Assembly (NCBI GenBank): GCA_037147175.1
Contig: JBAWVS010000004.1
Location: 25,934 to 89,933, forward strand
From: a bacterium
Lineage (GTDB): Bacteria > Cyanobacteriota > Vampirovibrionia > Gastranaerophilales > UBA9971
Length of the DNA: 64,000 nucleotides
Direction: 5' to 3'
Positions 11,322 through 63,970 of the stretch are shown here, in pieces. Below the pieces are notes generated by a model. That model saw only the letters and a program-made list of their open reading frames with translations. It was not told the origin of the DNA and did not search any database. The translations under genes and the position numbers were made by a program. Every line of letters begins with the position of its first letter. Position 1 is the stretch's first letter.

Positions 11322-14099
11322 CTATACTAATTGAGTTTCAAGATTTTGATGACTTTGCGAATTGATTTTCTTTCCAGCATCTATCCATTTCCAGCCTGTT
11401 GAAGTTTTTTCTGCCGAATAAATTTTGCCGGCTTCAAGATTTCTAAATTTATCTTCTCCAAGTGTGTCTTTTGAGATACTCACAGGAATTGAGGTTTTAT
11501 TATCAATACCCACCTTAAATTGAACTTTCTGATCGTTGGTAATATTCTTGGTAATAGTTACATTTAATTTTTGACCATGCCATTTAACATTGTATGCGAG
11601 TCTGTTCCATCTATTAGGAAGAGTAGGAGCAAACGCTAAACCGTTTTCTTTAAGATCCAGACCGCCAAAGCCTTTTATCAAAGCTATCCATGTTGCTCCA
11701 AGAGTTGCAGCATGAATACCGCCTTTAGCATTGTTCATCACATCGTCAATATCCATCCCTCCTGATTGGATAAAATATTTGTATGCTTCTTCTTTTTTTC
11801 CAAGCCTACTGGCGATTTGACTATGTATACCTACACTCAAAGAACTGCCATGGCTTGTTTTTGGTTCATAGTAATCATAATTGGCTTGAATTATTTTTTG
11901 AACATCGATACAGGGAAAAATTTCTCGAAGTCTGTCAGGGAGTGCTGAAGCTATCATCAACACATCAGATTGTTTTACACCCTGATAAGCATTTGCATCC
12001 AGCGGCTCGCCATGTTCATCTAAAATATTTTTTTCCCTATTTTCTTTTTTTATTACAACATCAAATTTCTGCGCAGGTTCTTCTCCGTATTTTTCTCTAA
12101 AATACTTTAAATCAACAGGCGGCAGATCATTAAAACCCTTAAACTGTTCTATAACAAGATTTTTATAATTTTTAGACACATAAATTTTTTCTTTAGCCTC
12201 ATCCCAGTCTTGTAGTTCCGAGTCCTGCAATTTTATTTTGTTTGATACTGTTTTATAGTCGGCAGGATATTTTTCTTTAAGGAAGAAAGCTACTTCTCTG
12301 GCTTTATCCAGATTATGTTTGATAAAAATGTTGGTATACGCATTATCATGGACACCTTCTTTTTCACCGTTGCTTTTTATAGCAAACTGTTCATGATATT
12401 CATCAGGACCAACAACATTTTTAGTATGAAGTTTGCCGTCATTTTCTTCTACAAGTATACTTCTTGAATATCTGGCAGTTTCAAACATAATTTCAGCGCC
12501 GTGACTTTTCATAAATTCATCATCGCCTGTTGCTTTCCAATAATCATAGACAGCACAAGCAACATCGGGGACTATGTGTCTTTCTGCCACAGCACTCATA
12601 ATTTTAACTTTTTTCCCATCTTCGTTAAACACCCAGGGCGGAGTTCTTTCCTCTCCGTTTGATGAAGATTCCCATGCATATCTTGCGCCTTTATAATGAG
12701 TCCCTTCTCTTTTATTTTCTATCTCTGTATTTTTTCTTGCGCCCGCGAGTGTGTGGTATCTGTACATAAGCATGTCTTTAGCTTTTTCAGGGTTGGTAAG
12801 GATAGTATGGGGAAGATCAAATATTTCGTTATCCCAAAACACATGTCCTGCATAATTTGGTCCTGTAAGTGTTCTTGCGGAAACAGAGTGATACTCGTCA
12901 TTATTTTCAGCAGCCATTACAAGACGGGCATTTGCATAATTGGCATATCTTTGAGATTTGCTGTCACCGCAAATATTTATACCGCATTCTTCCATTCTTT
13001 CGTTCATTTTTGACACATGAGCTTTATAATTTTGAGCATAAAAATCATCTGACATGGAATCCAAATGGGTAATACTTTTTTCAGAAGGGTCTTTCACTTT
13101 TGTGTTTATATTTTCATTGGGATTTTTGTCATCTACGCTTGAATGTATTGCCACCAGACTGTCAATTTTATATTCTTTACCCTGTTTCGCATCAAAAGTC
13201 CAATTTTCATAAACGGTTTTATCTTCTTTGTTATATTGTTTTGATGAAGATTTTTGTTCAACGCTTATAGAATCATCATCAGAAGAAAAAGTGCTTCTTT
13301 GGGATACCGAAAGTTGTTTGGAATGCTCTATTATTCCATTTTCTTTACCGTTGCCGTCTTTAAATTGCTGTTGTGGTGTTTGTACGCTTACTGTGACTGT
13401 TTTATTTAAAATTTGAGGAGAAATTTTAGCGTTCGGGACATTATCCTTTGCTAATACCACACTTGCATCTATTCCCGATTTTACCGATATTTTTCCTTTA
13501 TAATTTACAAGAGTTACAGAAATGCTTTTTCCGCCAATATTTCTATCTTTTAAAGACGCGAATTTTTCTGTTTTTATTTTAGTAATTTGACCTTTATCAT
13601 CCTGAACTTCTAATTCTCTTACGGTAACACCTTTTTTTGTATCAAAATATCTAATATGGCTAATAATCTTTTGTTCGCTGATATTTATGTCTTTACCGTC
13701 AACAAAAACCTGCATTTTTGTCCAATCCGGCATAACAGCGAGTTTATCTGTTTGTTTGTTATCGGGGTTTACAATATACATGCCTGCAACATACGTACCT
13801 GCTGTTGAAGTAGCTTTATAGCCTTCTTCCAGATCACTTCTTGCGCCAAAATACCCGTTTTCTATCGATAAAACAGATGAAAGAGCAGCGATTTTGTCCT
13901 TGTTTTCGGGAACAGGTTTTATATTTGTCACATCATAAAAAACCATATCAGGATTTTCAATAAGTGATGTGTTTTTCTTATTAAGTTCTTTTATTTCTGT
14001 AGGAGAAAGGAGCGATTTAATACCAAAAGATAAACTTGAAAGTTGTCTTTCAATCGAATTCAAATCATTCAAATTTGTATCTTGAGAAATGTTTAACAT
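11322..14099 (-). CDS. Glycoside hydrolase family 65 phosphorylase-like enzyme
   Basis: Family GH65 enzymes cleave alpha-glucosides such as maltose, trehalose or kojibiose, usually with phosphate, giving beta-glucose-1-phosphate. The (alpha/alpha)6 catalytic domain shows GPDEYHE near residue 566, whose glutamate is the general acid, and the phosphate-binding HGSSLS motif further on. At 925 residues it is longer than the usual 750-800. There is a polar N-terminal extension of about 70 residues before GYFGARS, and a Ser/Lys/Gln-rich stretch inside the N-terminal beta-sandwich domain (about 240-350). No beta-phosphoglucomutase, transporter or regulator is adjacent, so the substrate cannot be told. 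AGAGGG lies eight bases before the ATG. Confidence 0.9.
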   Translation of the reverse strand: MLNISQDTNLNDLNSIERQLSSLSFGIKSLLSPTEIKELNKKNTSLIENPDMVFYDVTNIKPVPENKDKIAALSSVLSIENGYFGARSDLEEGYKATSTAGTYVAGMYIVNPDNKQTDKLAVMPDWTKMQVFVDGKDINISEQKIISHIRYFDTKKGVTVRELEVQDDKGQITKIKTEKFASLKDRNIGGKSISVTLVNYKGKISVKSGIDASVVLAKDNVPNAKISPQILNKTVTVSVQTPQQQFKDGNGKENGIIEHSKQLSVSQRSTFSSDDDSISVEQKSSSKQYNKEDKTVYENWTFDAKQGKEYKIDSLVAIHSSVDDKNPNENINTKVKDPSEKSITHLDSMSDDFYAQNYKAHVSKMNERMEECGINICGDSKSQRYANYANARLVMAAENNDEYHSVSARTLTGPNYAGHVFWDNEIFDLPHTILTNPEKAKDMLMYRYHTLAGARKNTEIENKREGTHYKGARYAWESSSNGEERTPPWVFNEDGKKVKIMSAVAERHIVPDVACAVYDYWKATGDDEFMKSHGAEIMFETARYSRSILVEENDGKLHTKNVVGPDEYHEQFAIKSNGEKEGVHDNAYTNIFIKHNLDKAREVAFFLKEKYPADYKTVSNKIKLQDSELQDWDEAKEKIYVSKNYKNLVIEQFKGFNDLPPVDLKYFREKYGEEPAQKFDVVIKKENREKNILDEHGEPLDANAYQGVKQSDVLMIASALPDRLREIFPCIDVQKIIQANYDYYEPKTSHGSSLSVGIHSQIASRLGKKEEAYKYFIQSGGMDIDDVMNNAKGGIHAATLGATWIALIKGFGGLDLKENGLAFAPTLPNRWNRLAYNVKWHGQKLNVTITKNITNDQKVQFKVGIDNKTSIPVSISKDTLGEDKFRNLEAGKIYSAEKTSTGWKWIDAGKKINSQSHQNLETQLV

Positions 14100-22225: not shown

Positions 22226-22537
22226 ATGCAAAATATTTCATTTAAAGGTGTTGTTAGAATCCCTACACCTAATAGTCAAAACGATTCTAAAATACAATCT
22301 GCTTATTATGACGCAATTAATCATCCAAACCTCGGATGTATGGAAATAAAAAAGAATGAAATTGTTGTGCGTTTTTATGAAGACAGTGTAAAAGATGGAA
22401 AAGAAAAAAAATTCTTGGACGAGTTAAATAAAATAGGGGTGGATTATTGTCATTTAAAAAATGATGCGTTGAAATATAAAGATGGAATATATCCTGAAGC
22501 AGAGCAATTTGAAAAAGCAAATATATGGACTGCTTAA
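22226..22537 (+). CDS. Small protein with N-terminal ISFKG motif, unknown function
   Basis: A 103-residue soluble-looking protein whose residues 4-8 read ISFKG. Similar hydrophobic-x-F-x-G motifs begin other unrelated small proteins in this window (see findings). The body has alternating strand and helix patterns and no family I know. It is transcribed against the flanking yidD and yidC genes and so splits an otherwise conserved cluster. There is only a weak purine-rich ribosome site. The composition is as AT-rich as its neighbours, so no sign of recent transfer. Confidence 0.68.
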   Translation: MQNISFKGVVRIPTPNSQNDSKIQSAYYDAINHPNLGCMEIKKNEIVVRFYEDSVKDGKEKKFLDELNKIGVDYCHLKNDALKYKDGIYPEAEQFEKANIWTA

Positions 22538-32913: not shown

Positions 32914-33384
32914 ATGATGAACGTAGCATTCAACCCAATTCAACAGAGCAAACAACAGCCAGGGTTTAGCGGAAAACAAGAAATTGTAGAAAATTTCGGA
33001 AAAGCATTAATGCATTCAGTTACGGCTGCAAGTGATATGGTGTGTGCTGAATGTAGACATTATAATAGCGGTCGTATGGAAAGTCATATAAATGCAGCCT
33101 TGTCAGATGGAACGATTTTAAAATTTTTAAAAGACCCCGGAACTTTTTTAGAGAAGCAATTATTATTGCATACTAATGAAGTAGGTTATTTGGGCACCGC
33201 AAAAGGTTCTTTGTCAGAATTAGCCTCGTACTACGGAAGTGGATTTAATGAATTTGCAGATTATTTAACACAAATAGTTAAGAGTTATGTAAATGAACAC
33301 ACCGGATCAGCTTTGTATGGTAAAAAAGGCGCTATTGTTCAAGTTGATGAATTAATACAAAAAATTAAACCTAAAGCACAATAA
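32914..33384 (+). CDS. Small protein with N-terminal GFSGK motif, unknown function
   Basis: A 156-residue protein. After a short polar N-terminus residues 16-21 read PGFSGK, one instance of the hydrophobic-x-F-x-G class described in findings. The remainder looks alpha-helical, with a Cys/His cluster CAECRH (about residues 44-49) that could bind a metal. No family is recognised. A strong purine-rich ribosome site (AAAGGAAAGG) precedes the double ATG. A palindromic repeat follows the stop. Confidence 0.72.
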   Translation: MMNVAFNPIQQSKQQPGFSGKQEIVENFGKALMHSVTAASDMVCAECRHYNSGRMESHINAALSDGTILKFLKDPGTFLEKQLLLHTNEVGYLGTAKGSLSELASYYGSGFNEFADYLTQIVKSYVNEHTGSALYGKKGAIVQVDELIQKIKPKAQ

Positions 33385-39417: not shown

Positions 39418-39744
39418 ATGGAAGTAAAAAATTTTAACAGAGCTATTTTAACAAAATCAGCTTATTCAAGCCAATCAGCTCAAAAAAATCAAATTGCATT
39501 TCAGGGCTTAAAAGAAAAAGCATTTAAAGCAGGAGTGAAGTTGTCTCCTGTTGGAATAGTTGATAATCCTTTTGTTGTTGCCTCGATGGTTACACAAAAA
39601 GCATTAACAAGCTTAAAAGAAGCTGCCTTTAAAGCAGGAGTGAAGTTGTCTCCTGTTGGAATGGTTGATAACGCATTTGTTGCTGCTTCAATGCTTACAC
39701 AAAAAGTTGTGAAGTCCGTTATAAAATTTGCAAAGAAAATCTAA
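39418..39744 (+). CDS. Small duplicated protein with N-terminal IAFQG motif, unknown function
   Basis: The 108 residues begin with a polar segment ending in IAFQG (about residues 27-31). Then follow two nearly identical 35-residue units, each starting FKAGVKLSPVG and containing VDN.FV.ASM.TQK. The units are also nearly identical in DNA (39526 and 39631, 105 bases apart), so the duplication is recent. The basic, amphipathic units might bind membrane or nucleic acid; nothing more can be said. AAAAAGG lies upstream of the ATG. Confidence 0.72.
   Translation: MEVKNFNRAILTKSAYSSQSAQKNQIAFQGLKEKAFKAGVKLSPVGIVDNPFVVASMVTQKALTSLKEAAFKAGVKLSPVGMVDNAFVAASMLTQKVVKSVIKFAKKI
39526..39735 (+). repeat. In-frame tandem duplication, 2 x 105 bp
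   Basis: Bases from 39526 and from 39631 share a run of about 40 bases with one change (AAAGCAGGAGTGAAGTTGTC and onward), diverging later in the unit. The period of 105 keeps the frame. Confidence 0.85.
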
Positions 39745-47299: not shown

Positions 47300-47902
47300 A
47301 TGAATATACGCTTTAGCGCTAATCAAAATGATGCTTTATATAACACAAAATATTTGCAGCTAAAAAAAGCCAAATCCCCTAACGGAAAATCTGATTGGGT
47401 ATATGCGCACAGACCGAATGCAAAAGACGTAGTAGTAATTGCACCTGTTATTCACAGCAAAGATGGCGACAGTGTGGTATTCATAGAGACAGAAAGACCG
47501 CCAATTAAAGCTGAAGGAAAAGCAGACAGATGCATAGAATTACCTGCCGGTCTGGTAGGTGATGAAAATTCTGCAGAAGAAACAGAACAGGCATTAGTTA
47601 AAGAATTATTGGAAGAAACAGGCTATAAACCTGATAAAATAACAATTCAAGGCAAAAATATCGCCAGTTCTCCCGGTTGTACTTCTGAAACCTCAACTAT
47701 TGCAATAGCTGATATTAATCAGGATACACTTTCACAAAGGCCTATAACTGATGGAGGTGTAATCAAAGCCATTCATAAAGTTCCGCTAAAAGAACTTTCA
47801 AAATGGTTAGGAGAACAACAGGCAAAGGGAAAAGCTGTCAGTGCGCAAGCATTATCGGGATTATACTTTGTTTTATCGAGATTACACGCAGATTCAAACT
47901 GA
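47300..47902 (+). CDS. Nudix hydrolase (ADP-ribose pyrophosphatase-like)
   Basis: Predicted to cleave a nucleoside diphosphate linked to another group. The Nudix box runs from about residue 81 (LPAGLVGDEN) to 107 (VKELLEETGY); the consensus arginine is lysine, a tolerated but uncommon change. The PAG before the box suits ADP-ribose/ADP-glucose-type enzymes. Start ATG 47300 is used; the frame is open 30 codons further upstream but those encode Lys/Asn-rich AT sequence. The N-terminus, MNIRFSANQ, resembles the F-x-G class motifs of other proteins here. Its 3' end overlaps the convergent cyclase gene by nine bases. Confidence 0.87.
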   Translation: MNIRFSANQNDALYNTKYLQLKKAKSPNGKSDWVYAHRPNAKDVVVIAPVIHSKDGDSVVFIETERPPIKAEGKADRCIELPAGLVGDENSAEETEQALVKELLEETGYKPDKITIQGKNIASSPGCTSETSTIAIADINQDTLSQRPITDGGVIKAIHKVPLKELSKWLGEQQAKGKAVSAQALSGLYFVLSRLHADSN

Positions 47903-62650: not shown

Positions 62651-63970
62651 ATGCCATATTATAGTTTTTATGTAAAAAAAGGTAAATATCAAGTCGAAAT
62701 GACTTCTGATGATATTTATTTCGCAAAGAGGCAGGTTGATAAACTCTTTGAAAAATTAGCTAAAAAGCAAGGAAAACTCAGAGTTGTCCTTCCGCCGATT
62801 GATCCTGAAAAATTAAAAAATGAACAAAAAGAATTTAAAAAAACAAGTGTAATTAAAGAACCAACCCCGGAACAAGAAAAACAAGCGATTAAAACTGAAA
62901 AAGCTGTTGAAATAACCAAAAAAACAGCTCAAGAAAAATCGGCAGAACTTATTTTTTCCGAAGAAGAAGAAGCGGTAATTGAAGAAGTAGACAAATTACT
63001 TCACGAAGAGATTCGCGAAAAAGAAGATGAAGCAGTAATTGAAGAAGTAGACAAATTGCTTCACGAGGAGATTCGCGAAAAAGAAGATGAAACAATTATT
63101 GAAGAAGTAGACAAATTACTTCACGAGGAGATTCGCGAAAAAGAAGATGAAACAATTATTGAAGAAGTAGACAAATTACTTCACGAAGAGATTCGTGAGA
63201 AAGAAGAGAAAGCAGTAATTGAAGAAGTAGACAAATTGCTTCACGAAGAACTTCGCGAAAAAGAAGATGAAACAATTATTGAAGACTCAGGTGAAAATCT
63301 TTTTGAAAATATTTTGGCAAAGAAAACACTTGAAATAAATAAAAATATAGAAGAGTTAAAAGCAAAAGAACAACAACCGGTAAAAAAGACAACTGTTGAA
63401 AAGAAAAAATTCAGCTTTAAAAATCTGACTAGAGACCCTCTTAAAGCTTCTAATCATACTGAAGCTTCTTCCAATCAAAAAACAGAAATTAAAACCTCTG
63501 TGAAGGAAGAAGATGATGAAGCAATCGCAAAAATTATTGAAGAAAAAATCAAAAAAAATCTTCCTAAGCCGGAAGACGAAACTGTTGTTGAAGACACAGC
63601 AATCGAGCAGGAATTTGAATTTATAGAACCGGCCGAACCTGATGTAATTTATACTGAATTATACGAAGATCATAATCTAATGACTCAAGATTTTGAGACA
63701 ATGGAAGAGCTTATAGCTATTAAAAAGCCTCAAACAAAACTGGATTATTTATTATTAACAGCTTATTATCTTCAAACAAAAGAAGACCTGTTTAAATATT
63801 CTCTTAAGCAGCTTAATTCAAAGTCAATGCCCTTTTTAGGTTCTTTAATAGATCATTCTATAATTCACAATGCGGTTGCTCATGATTTTATTGAGATTGT
63901 TCCTGATTACAATGGAACAGCGGAAGTTACAGAATACAGATTAACTCGGGACCTTAAGAAATTTTATTGA
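62651..63970 (+). CDS. Repeat-containing protein with an FKKG-type N-domain and winged-helix-like C-domain
   Basis: A 439-residue acidic protein with no recognised family. The first 40 residues are homologous to the 39-residue protein 51 bases upstream. Five near-identical 20-residue repeats follow (about residues 107-206, consensus IEEVDKLLHEEIREKEDE), then a partial sixth, all likely coiled coil. A Lys/Glu-rich spacer leads to a folded C-terminal domain (about 350-439) with LDYLLLTAYYLQ and FIEIVPDYNGTAEVTEYRLT, which looks like a winged helix. The length ends just before the window edge. It may be a scaffold or DNA-associated protein; this is inference. Confidence 0.75.
   Translation: MPYYSFYVKKGKYQVEMTSDDIYFAKRQVDKLFEKLAKKQGKLRVVLPPIDPEKLKNEQKEFKKTSVIKEPTPEQEKQAIKTEKAVEITKKTAQEKSAELIFSEEEEAVIEEVDKLLHEEIREKEDEAVIEEVDKLLHEEIREKEDETIIEEVDKLLHEEIREKEDETIIEEVDKLLHEEIREKEEKAVIEEVDKLLHEELREKEDETIIEDSGENLFENILAKKTLEINKNIEELKAKEQQPVKKTTVEKKKFSFKNLTRDPLKASNHTEASSNQKTEIKTSVKEEDDEAIAKIIEEKIKKNLPKPEDETVVEDTAIEQEFEFIEPAEPDVIYTELYEDHNLMTQDFETMEELIAIKKPQTKLDYLLLTAYYLQTKEDLFKYSLKQLNSKSMPFLGSLIDHSIIHNAVAHDFIEIVPDYNGTAEVTEYRLTRDLKKFY
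62969..63268 (+). repeat. Tandem repeats, five units of 60 bp
   Basis: Units start at 62969, 63029, 63089, 63149 and 63209, each GA(A/G)...GTAATTGAAGAAGTAGAC-like, with few differences, mostly at wobble positions and in one Val/Ile codon. A partial sixth unit begins at 63269. Exact 60-base spacing keeps the reading frame. Confidence 0.93.

What the first reader, a model, noticed from the sequence alone, without database searches (positions are those of the whole stretch)
22226..22537. A recurring N-terminal hydrophobic-x-F-x-G motif on otherwise unrelated small proteins
Four proteins of this window with no other shared sequence carry a short motif near the N-terminus: ISFKG (22226 gene), GFSGK (32914 gene), IAFQG (39418 gene) and, more loosely, IRFSA in the Nudix protein (47300). 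The GH65 protein has LSFGI in its unusual N-terminal extension. The proteins are a small soluble protein, a Cys/His helical protein, a duplicated basic protein and an enzyme. A short tag shared by unrelated proteins suggests sorting, secretion or binding to one common partner. I recall similar motifs on many Gastranaerophilales proteins, but cannot verify that here.
Basis: partly seen in the sequence, partly recalled or inferred. Interest (0 to 1): 0.72.

Follow-up and report, generated by a model that had tools for sequence, protein, structure and literature searches.

The report
Shared N-terminal tag on unrelated proteins
Gut bacteria of the order Gastranaerophilales put a short common tag (roughly 'Ile-Ser-Phe-Lys-Gly') near the start of dozens of unrelated proteins, which looks like an address label, possibly for export by a flagellum-like machine that all of them keep even when they have no flagellin.

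Summary
The motif is real and goes far beyond the window. The excess sits only in soluble, Asn/Gln/Ser/Thr/Pro-rich, acid-poor N-terminal leaders. Pooled over the order, one protein per family, window excluded, 20.3 of 215 families carry it against 5.3 in shuffled leaders; for the refined core [IVLP]-x-F-x-[GSA] it is 24.9 against 4.5. It fades after residue 40. Loci from other phyla show no excess; a sister order gives an inconclusive result. Of the five window proteins named, 22226, 32914 and 39418 are good examples; the Nudix case is not conserved in 28 orthologues; GH65 fails the stated pattern. Proposed mechanism, inferred only: the leader plus motif is a sorting signal for a divergent flagellar-type export apparatus. 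Its FlhA was found in 146/146 genomes, flagellin in only 54/146. For it: leader composition, Sec signals replaced by leaders in 5'-nucleotidases, and tagged genes beside flhB. Against it: canonical FliK lacks the tag. An unidentified intracellular receptor is nearly as likely.

The parts
22226..22537 (+). Orphan 103-aa protein carrying the tag; no convincing homologue found
   Evidence: 146 genomes: only a spurious hit in an aminopeptidase-P-like protein; no viral relative; AlphaFold model mean pLDDT 65, alpha/beta, no confident fold match
22235..22249 (+). Motif I-S-F-K-G, residues 4-8
   Evidence: translation
32914..33384 (+). 156-aa protein with leader MMNVAFNPIQQSKQQPGFSGK; paralogue in the same genome (C2:108715-109164, 45% identity) keeps LSFSG
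32959..32973 (+). Motif P-G-F-S-G, residues 16-20
39418..39744 (+). 108-aa protein with internal duplication and leader ...AQKNQIAFQG
   Evidence: no Pfam family above cut-off
39493..39507 (+). Motif I-A-F-Q-G, residues 26-30
47300..47902 (+). Nudix protein with a lineage-specific N-terminal extension MNIRFSANQND; doubtful member of the set
   Evidence: PF00293; 28 orthologues start at the equivalent of residue ~11 and lack the motif
47306..47320 (+). Motif-like I-R-F-S-A, residues 3-7
11322..14099 (-). GH65-family protein with Asn/Ser-rich N-terminal extension; weak member (LSFG, not the full core)
   Evidence: PF03632/PF03636/PF03633
14019..14033 (-). Motif-like L-S-F-G-I, residues 23-27

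Best explanation
In Gastranaerophilales a set of soluble, mostly unrelated proteins carries an N-terminal leader of about 5-40 residues. The leader is rich in Asn, Ser, Gln and Pro, poor in Asp, Glu, Gly and Leu, and contains a short linear motif [I/V/L/P]-x-F-x-[G/S/A]. (Shown statistically.) I propose that leader plus motif is a non-Sec sorting signal recognised by a dedicated partner, most likely on the order's divergent flagellar-type (type III) export apparatus, so that tagged proteins are exported substrates rather than cytosolic housekeeping enzymes. Shown: enrichment, position, restriction to leaders, presence in several families of the order, near-universal export gate without flagellin, leaders in place of Sec signals in 5'-nucleotidases. 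Inferred: recognition of the motif, export itself, destination.
For: (2) It recurs inside variable leaders of homologous proteins: 8 of 9 members of a ~450-aa family (by inspection of the 14 rows) and 8 of 44 5'-nucleotidase leaders against 1.5 shuffled. (3) Leader composition N/Q/S/P up, D/E/G/L down, resembling the Ser-enriched, coil-rich type III signals described in PMC3617162. (4) Other-phylum 5'-nucleotidases, and one own paralogue, have Sec-type hydrophobic N-termini; most Gastranaerophilales ones have leaders instead. (5) Divergent FlhA/FliF/FliE/rod/FliH/FliI/FliMN/FliPQR/FlhB set; FlhA in 146/146 genomes, flagellin in 54/146. (6) The ~450-aa tagged family and the leadered 5'-nucleotidase lie beside flhB and a sigma-factor-like gene in some genomes.
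Against: Canonical flagellar FliK, a secreted substrate, lacks the tag: 2 of 21, both from one genus, shuffled mean 0.4. Sister-order genome G209 has the divergent apparatus but no clear motif excess; only 130 proteins. G006, in the same order, shows no significant excess either (151 proteins). Some tagged proteins look cytosolic (dephospho-CoA kinase, uridine-kinase-like, AAA). [quoted passage not shown] The flhB neighbourhood also holds unrelated genes (deoC, atp), so linkage may be incidental. No secretin or needle genes were looked for. No export data.
Confidence: 0.38

Rival explanations
1. The tag binds an intracellular receptor (scaffold, granule, pole, encapsulating shell or protease adaptor) and gathers proteins inside the cell; no export.
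For: Several tagged proteins are nucleotide-using enzymes that have untagged paralogues in the same genome (CoaE-like, uridine-kinase-like, DHH), as expected of isozymes sent to a separate site. No hydrophobic segment or obvious cleavage site.
Against: No candidate receptor was searched for genome-wide except, incidentally, the soluble FlhA_C-like protein, itself an export-type domain; most tagged proteins match no Pfam family, which does not point to one pathway.
Confidence: 0.32
2. The motif has no receptor: it is a by-product of how leaders arise, for example a short hydrophobic patch capping the start of the folded domain.
For: In the low-confidence model of the 22226 protein the Phe starts the first strand; the pattern is short and degenerate; a wider 11-residue profile transfers poorly between genomes.
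Against: Specific residues (Ser before, small residue two after the Phe) are preferred; excess over composition-preserving shuffles in independent loci; the motif sits at variable distance from the folded domain.
Confidence: 0.2
3. Chance plus reader selection; there is no shared tag.
For: The loose pattern gives about 18 hits by chance in this sample; two of the five named cases fail.
Against: p=8e-7 with the unchanged pattern after removing homologues and the window; other-phylum controls are null.
Confidence: 0.05

Closest known systems
N-terminal signals of type III secreted effectors
   Same: Disordered-looking, Ser/Asn/Pro-rich N-terminal leaders on unrelated proteins without Sec signals
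   Different: Known signals show no common motif (PMC3617162); here a five-residue core is shared. No secretion shown.
Export signals of early flagellar subunits (hydrophobic N-terminal signal plus gate recognition motif, PMC8983047)
   Same: Small hydrophobic residue near the N-terminus (Ile/Val at position 3 in 29 of 63 tagged proteins) followed by a Phe motif
   Different: [quoted passage not shown] here the Phe is at residues 5-39, mostly 6-25
Flagellum-derived export systems without a filament (ancestral non-flagellar systems, PMC3459982)
   Same: Export gate, ATPase and rod-type genes kept without flagellin
   Different: FliF-like full-length ring protein and rod proteins present; secretin and needle not tested

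Membership tests
Type III secretion substrate signal | N-terminal location (about first 30-50 residues) | tested here: met
   position profile
Type III secretion substrate signal | No hydrophobic Sec/Tat signal or transmembrane segment at the N-terminus | tested here: inconclusive
   true by selection of the set (hydropathy filter), so not an independent test; independently seen in 5'-nucleotidases
Type III secretion substrate signal | Ser/Asn/Pro-rich, acid-poor composition | tested here: met
   partly biased because the 63 sequences were hand-picked
Type III secretion substrate signal | Genome encodes a type III-like export apparatus | tested here: met
Type III secretion substrate signal | Same signal on a known substrate (FliK) | tested here: not met
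   2 of 21
Type III secretion substrate signal | Secretion depends on the apparatus | not testable with these tools
   needs an experiment
Divergent apparatus as a flagellar FlhA or injectisome SctV | FlhA above either curated equivalog cut-off | tested here: not met
   658-701 bits against 772 for FlhA, 584-586 against 692 for SctV; own canonical FlhA scores 859
Non-flagellar T3SS (injectisome) | Secretin SctC and needle SctF | not tested
   no search run
Encapsulin or microcompartment cargo peptide | Shell protein in the genome | not tested
   no search run

The most novel reading that the evidence does not exclude
An order-wide N-terminal sorting code in Gastranaerophilales: a short Phe motif in a disordered leader that directs dozens of otherwise unrelated enzymes and orphans per genome to a filament-less, flagellum-derived export machine, possibly into other cells of the gut.
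Probability: 0.3. Interest if true: 0.85.

Novelty: new variant of a known kind. Interest (0 to 1): 0.6.

Why it matters
If the tag is a sorting signal, it marks about 20 proteins in excess of chance in the 1.18 Mb sampled here (roughly 45 per genome by extrapolation), mostly without a Pfam family, in gut bacteria that are known almost only from metagenomes. It would give a sequence handle on their secretome, and a function for flagellar-type genes that were read as leftovers of genome reduction (PMC3787301). It would also be a rare case of a type III-like signal with a recognisable motif.

Tried and rejected
11-residue profile trained on one genome: overfits, little transfer. Plain count over all N-termini including membrane proteins: drowned by hydrophobic signals. 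FxxxPhi flagellar docking motif: position +4 after the Phe is mostly polar, not hydrophobic. FliK as positive control: failed. Orthologues of 22226: none found; the G012 hit is spurious. Nudix as a conserved member: rejected. Fold of the 22226 protein: model too weak, no match below E=0.001. Literature: three papers hold both 'Melainabacteria' and 'type III secretion'; judged by title and abstract only, none concerns such a tag or system.

Full report
Observation. The window lies in a 2.66-Mb, 109-contig genome; homologues in named records place it in Candidatus Gastranaerophilales. I called genes with my own simple caller (codon bias plus ribosome-binding site) on 1.24 Mb of this genome, 400 kb each of two relatives (G018, G013), 200 kb of a third (G006) and 200 kb of a sister order in the same class (G209). 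Start-site errors are the main technical risk.

Statistics. A tighter core chosen after inspection, [IVLP][SGAKNRP]F[KTSQNGRA][GSA], gives 33 against 6.2 and 11.1 in the same genome. It was then tested on 43 Gastranaerophilales loci not used to choose it: 21 against 6.1 and 7.2, whereas 36 loci from other phyla give 5 against 3.7 and 4.7. Those loci are centred on 5'-nucleotidases, which supply six of the 21 hits. The rule was set after seeing leaders, but shuffling is done within the class. Pooling the order, dropping the window and taking one protein per homologous family: 20.3 of 215 against 5.3 (reader), 24.9 against 4.5 (refined); refined hits fall from 2-5 per thousand positions before residue 40 to about 1 or fewer after it. 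An 11-residue profile does not transfer well, so only the short core is shared.

Unevenness. By single genome the refined core is significant in own, G018 and G013 but not in G006 (3 against 2.1-2.3, 151 proteins). Sister-order G209 gives 4 against 1.7-2.0, with no excess in leaders (1 of 22). The last two samples are too small to say whether the tag is uniform in, or confined to, the order.

Conservation. The 32914 protein has a paralogue at C2:108715-109164 that keeps LSFSG. 22226 has no convincing homologue in 146 genomes. Nudix orthologues in 28 genomes begin at the catalytic part and lack the motif. In a ~450-aa family next to 5'-nucleotidases, 8 of 9 members have [IVLPM].F.[GSA] inside leaders that otherwise vary; the script's 14 sequences included five unrelated ones, and 8 hits against 0.94 shuffled is for all 14. 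Leaders of related members are not independent. Among 44 distinct 5'-nucleotidase leaders, 8 have the motif against 1.5 shuffled. 39418 was not searched in relatives' genomes beyond the sequence held here.

What is tagged. Of 63 hand-picked examples most match no Pfam family. The rest include 5'-nucleotidase, M20 peptidase, HAD, DHH, Nudix, GH65, dephospho-CoA kinase, uridine-kinase-like, AAA/M41, DUF4258, STAND NTPase and one metallopeptidase-like protein with HEAT repeats. Leaders are enriched in N, Q, S, P and depleted in D, E, G, L; position 3 is Ile or Val in 29 of 63.

Candidate machine. FHIPEP (FlhA/SctV) is in 146 of 146 genomes of the order, most with a divergent copy (E about 1e-218), and flagellin in 54. 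The divergent copy passes neither the FlhA nor the SctV curated cut-off. Around it and elsewhere in the sampled genomes are FliF-like, FliE, rod, FliH, FliI, FliM/N-like, FliP, FliQ, FliR and FlhB genes, also in genomes with no flagellin hit such as G018, G001 and, from the hidden part of the list, apparently G046. FliQ, FliR and FliE were assigned by position and sequence look, not by a family search. Di Rienzi et al. 2013 (PMC3787301) already saw flagellar genes without filament genes in MEL.A1 and read them as reduction. In several genomes of family f2 the leadered 5'-nucleotidase lies beside flhB, and in two loci read in full the tagged ~450-aa gene and a sigma-factor-like gene are there too. 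This is suggestive only: deoC and atp genes are there as well.

Failed control. Canonical FliK, a protein secreted by the flagellar apparatus, does not carry the tag (2 of 21, one genus). So if the tag is an export signal it is not the general one for the flagellum.

Verdict. That the tag exists I hold at about 0.9. That it serves export by the divergent apparatus is a hypothesis at about 0.38, close to an intracellular receptor at 0.32. Nothing here shows localisation, binding or secretion.

Noticed in passing
L274-L278 (G018, G046, G013, G006, own C28:13932-15035): Soluble ~500-aa protein with a different N-terminal part and an FlhA cytosolic domain but no membrane part, in all five order genomes examined and not in sister-order G209; possible receptor for leaders.
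   Followed up: partly
own C31:16063-18039 and C31:21078-21605; C34:20519; C13:30221: Second, divergent flagellar-type export gene set in addition to the canonical flagellar one on C9.
   Followed up: partly
L110:10092-11849 (own C5:50089-51849): Tagged 586-aa protein with HEAT-like repeats and a weak match just above cut-off to the metallopeptidase-type family PF07737 (ATLF).
   Followed up: no
own C9:1371-3273; C15:6356-8131; C1:134292-135219: Tandem arrays of tagged small paralogues.
   Followed up: no
window 62651-63970: Predicted protein with a repeated acidic segment EEVDKLLHEEIREKE(D).
   Followed up: no
window 39418-39744: Internal duplication of about 30 residues (KEKAFKAGVKLSPVG / KEAAFKAGVKLSPVG).
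   Followed up: no
G018:C2 175638-179064, own C14:22154-23899, own C9:7371-8972: Family of about 530-580 aa with tagged leaders; the member scanned singly has no Pfam match.
   Followed up: no
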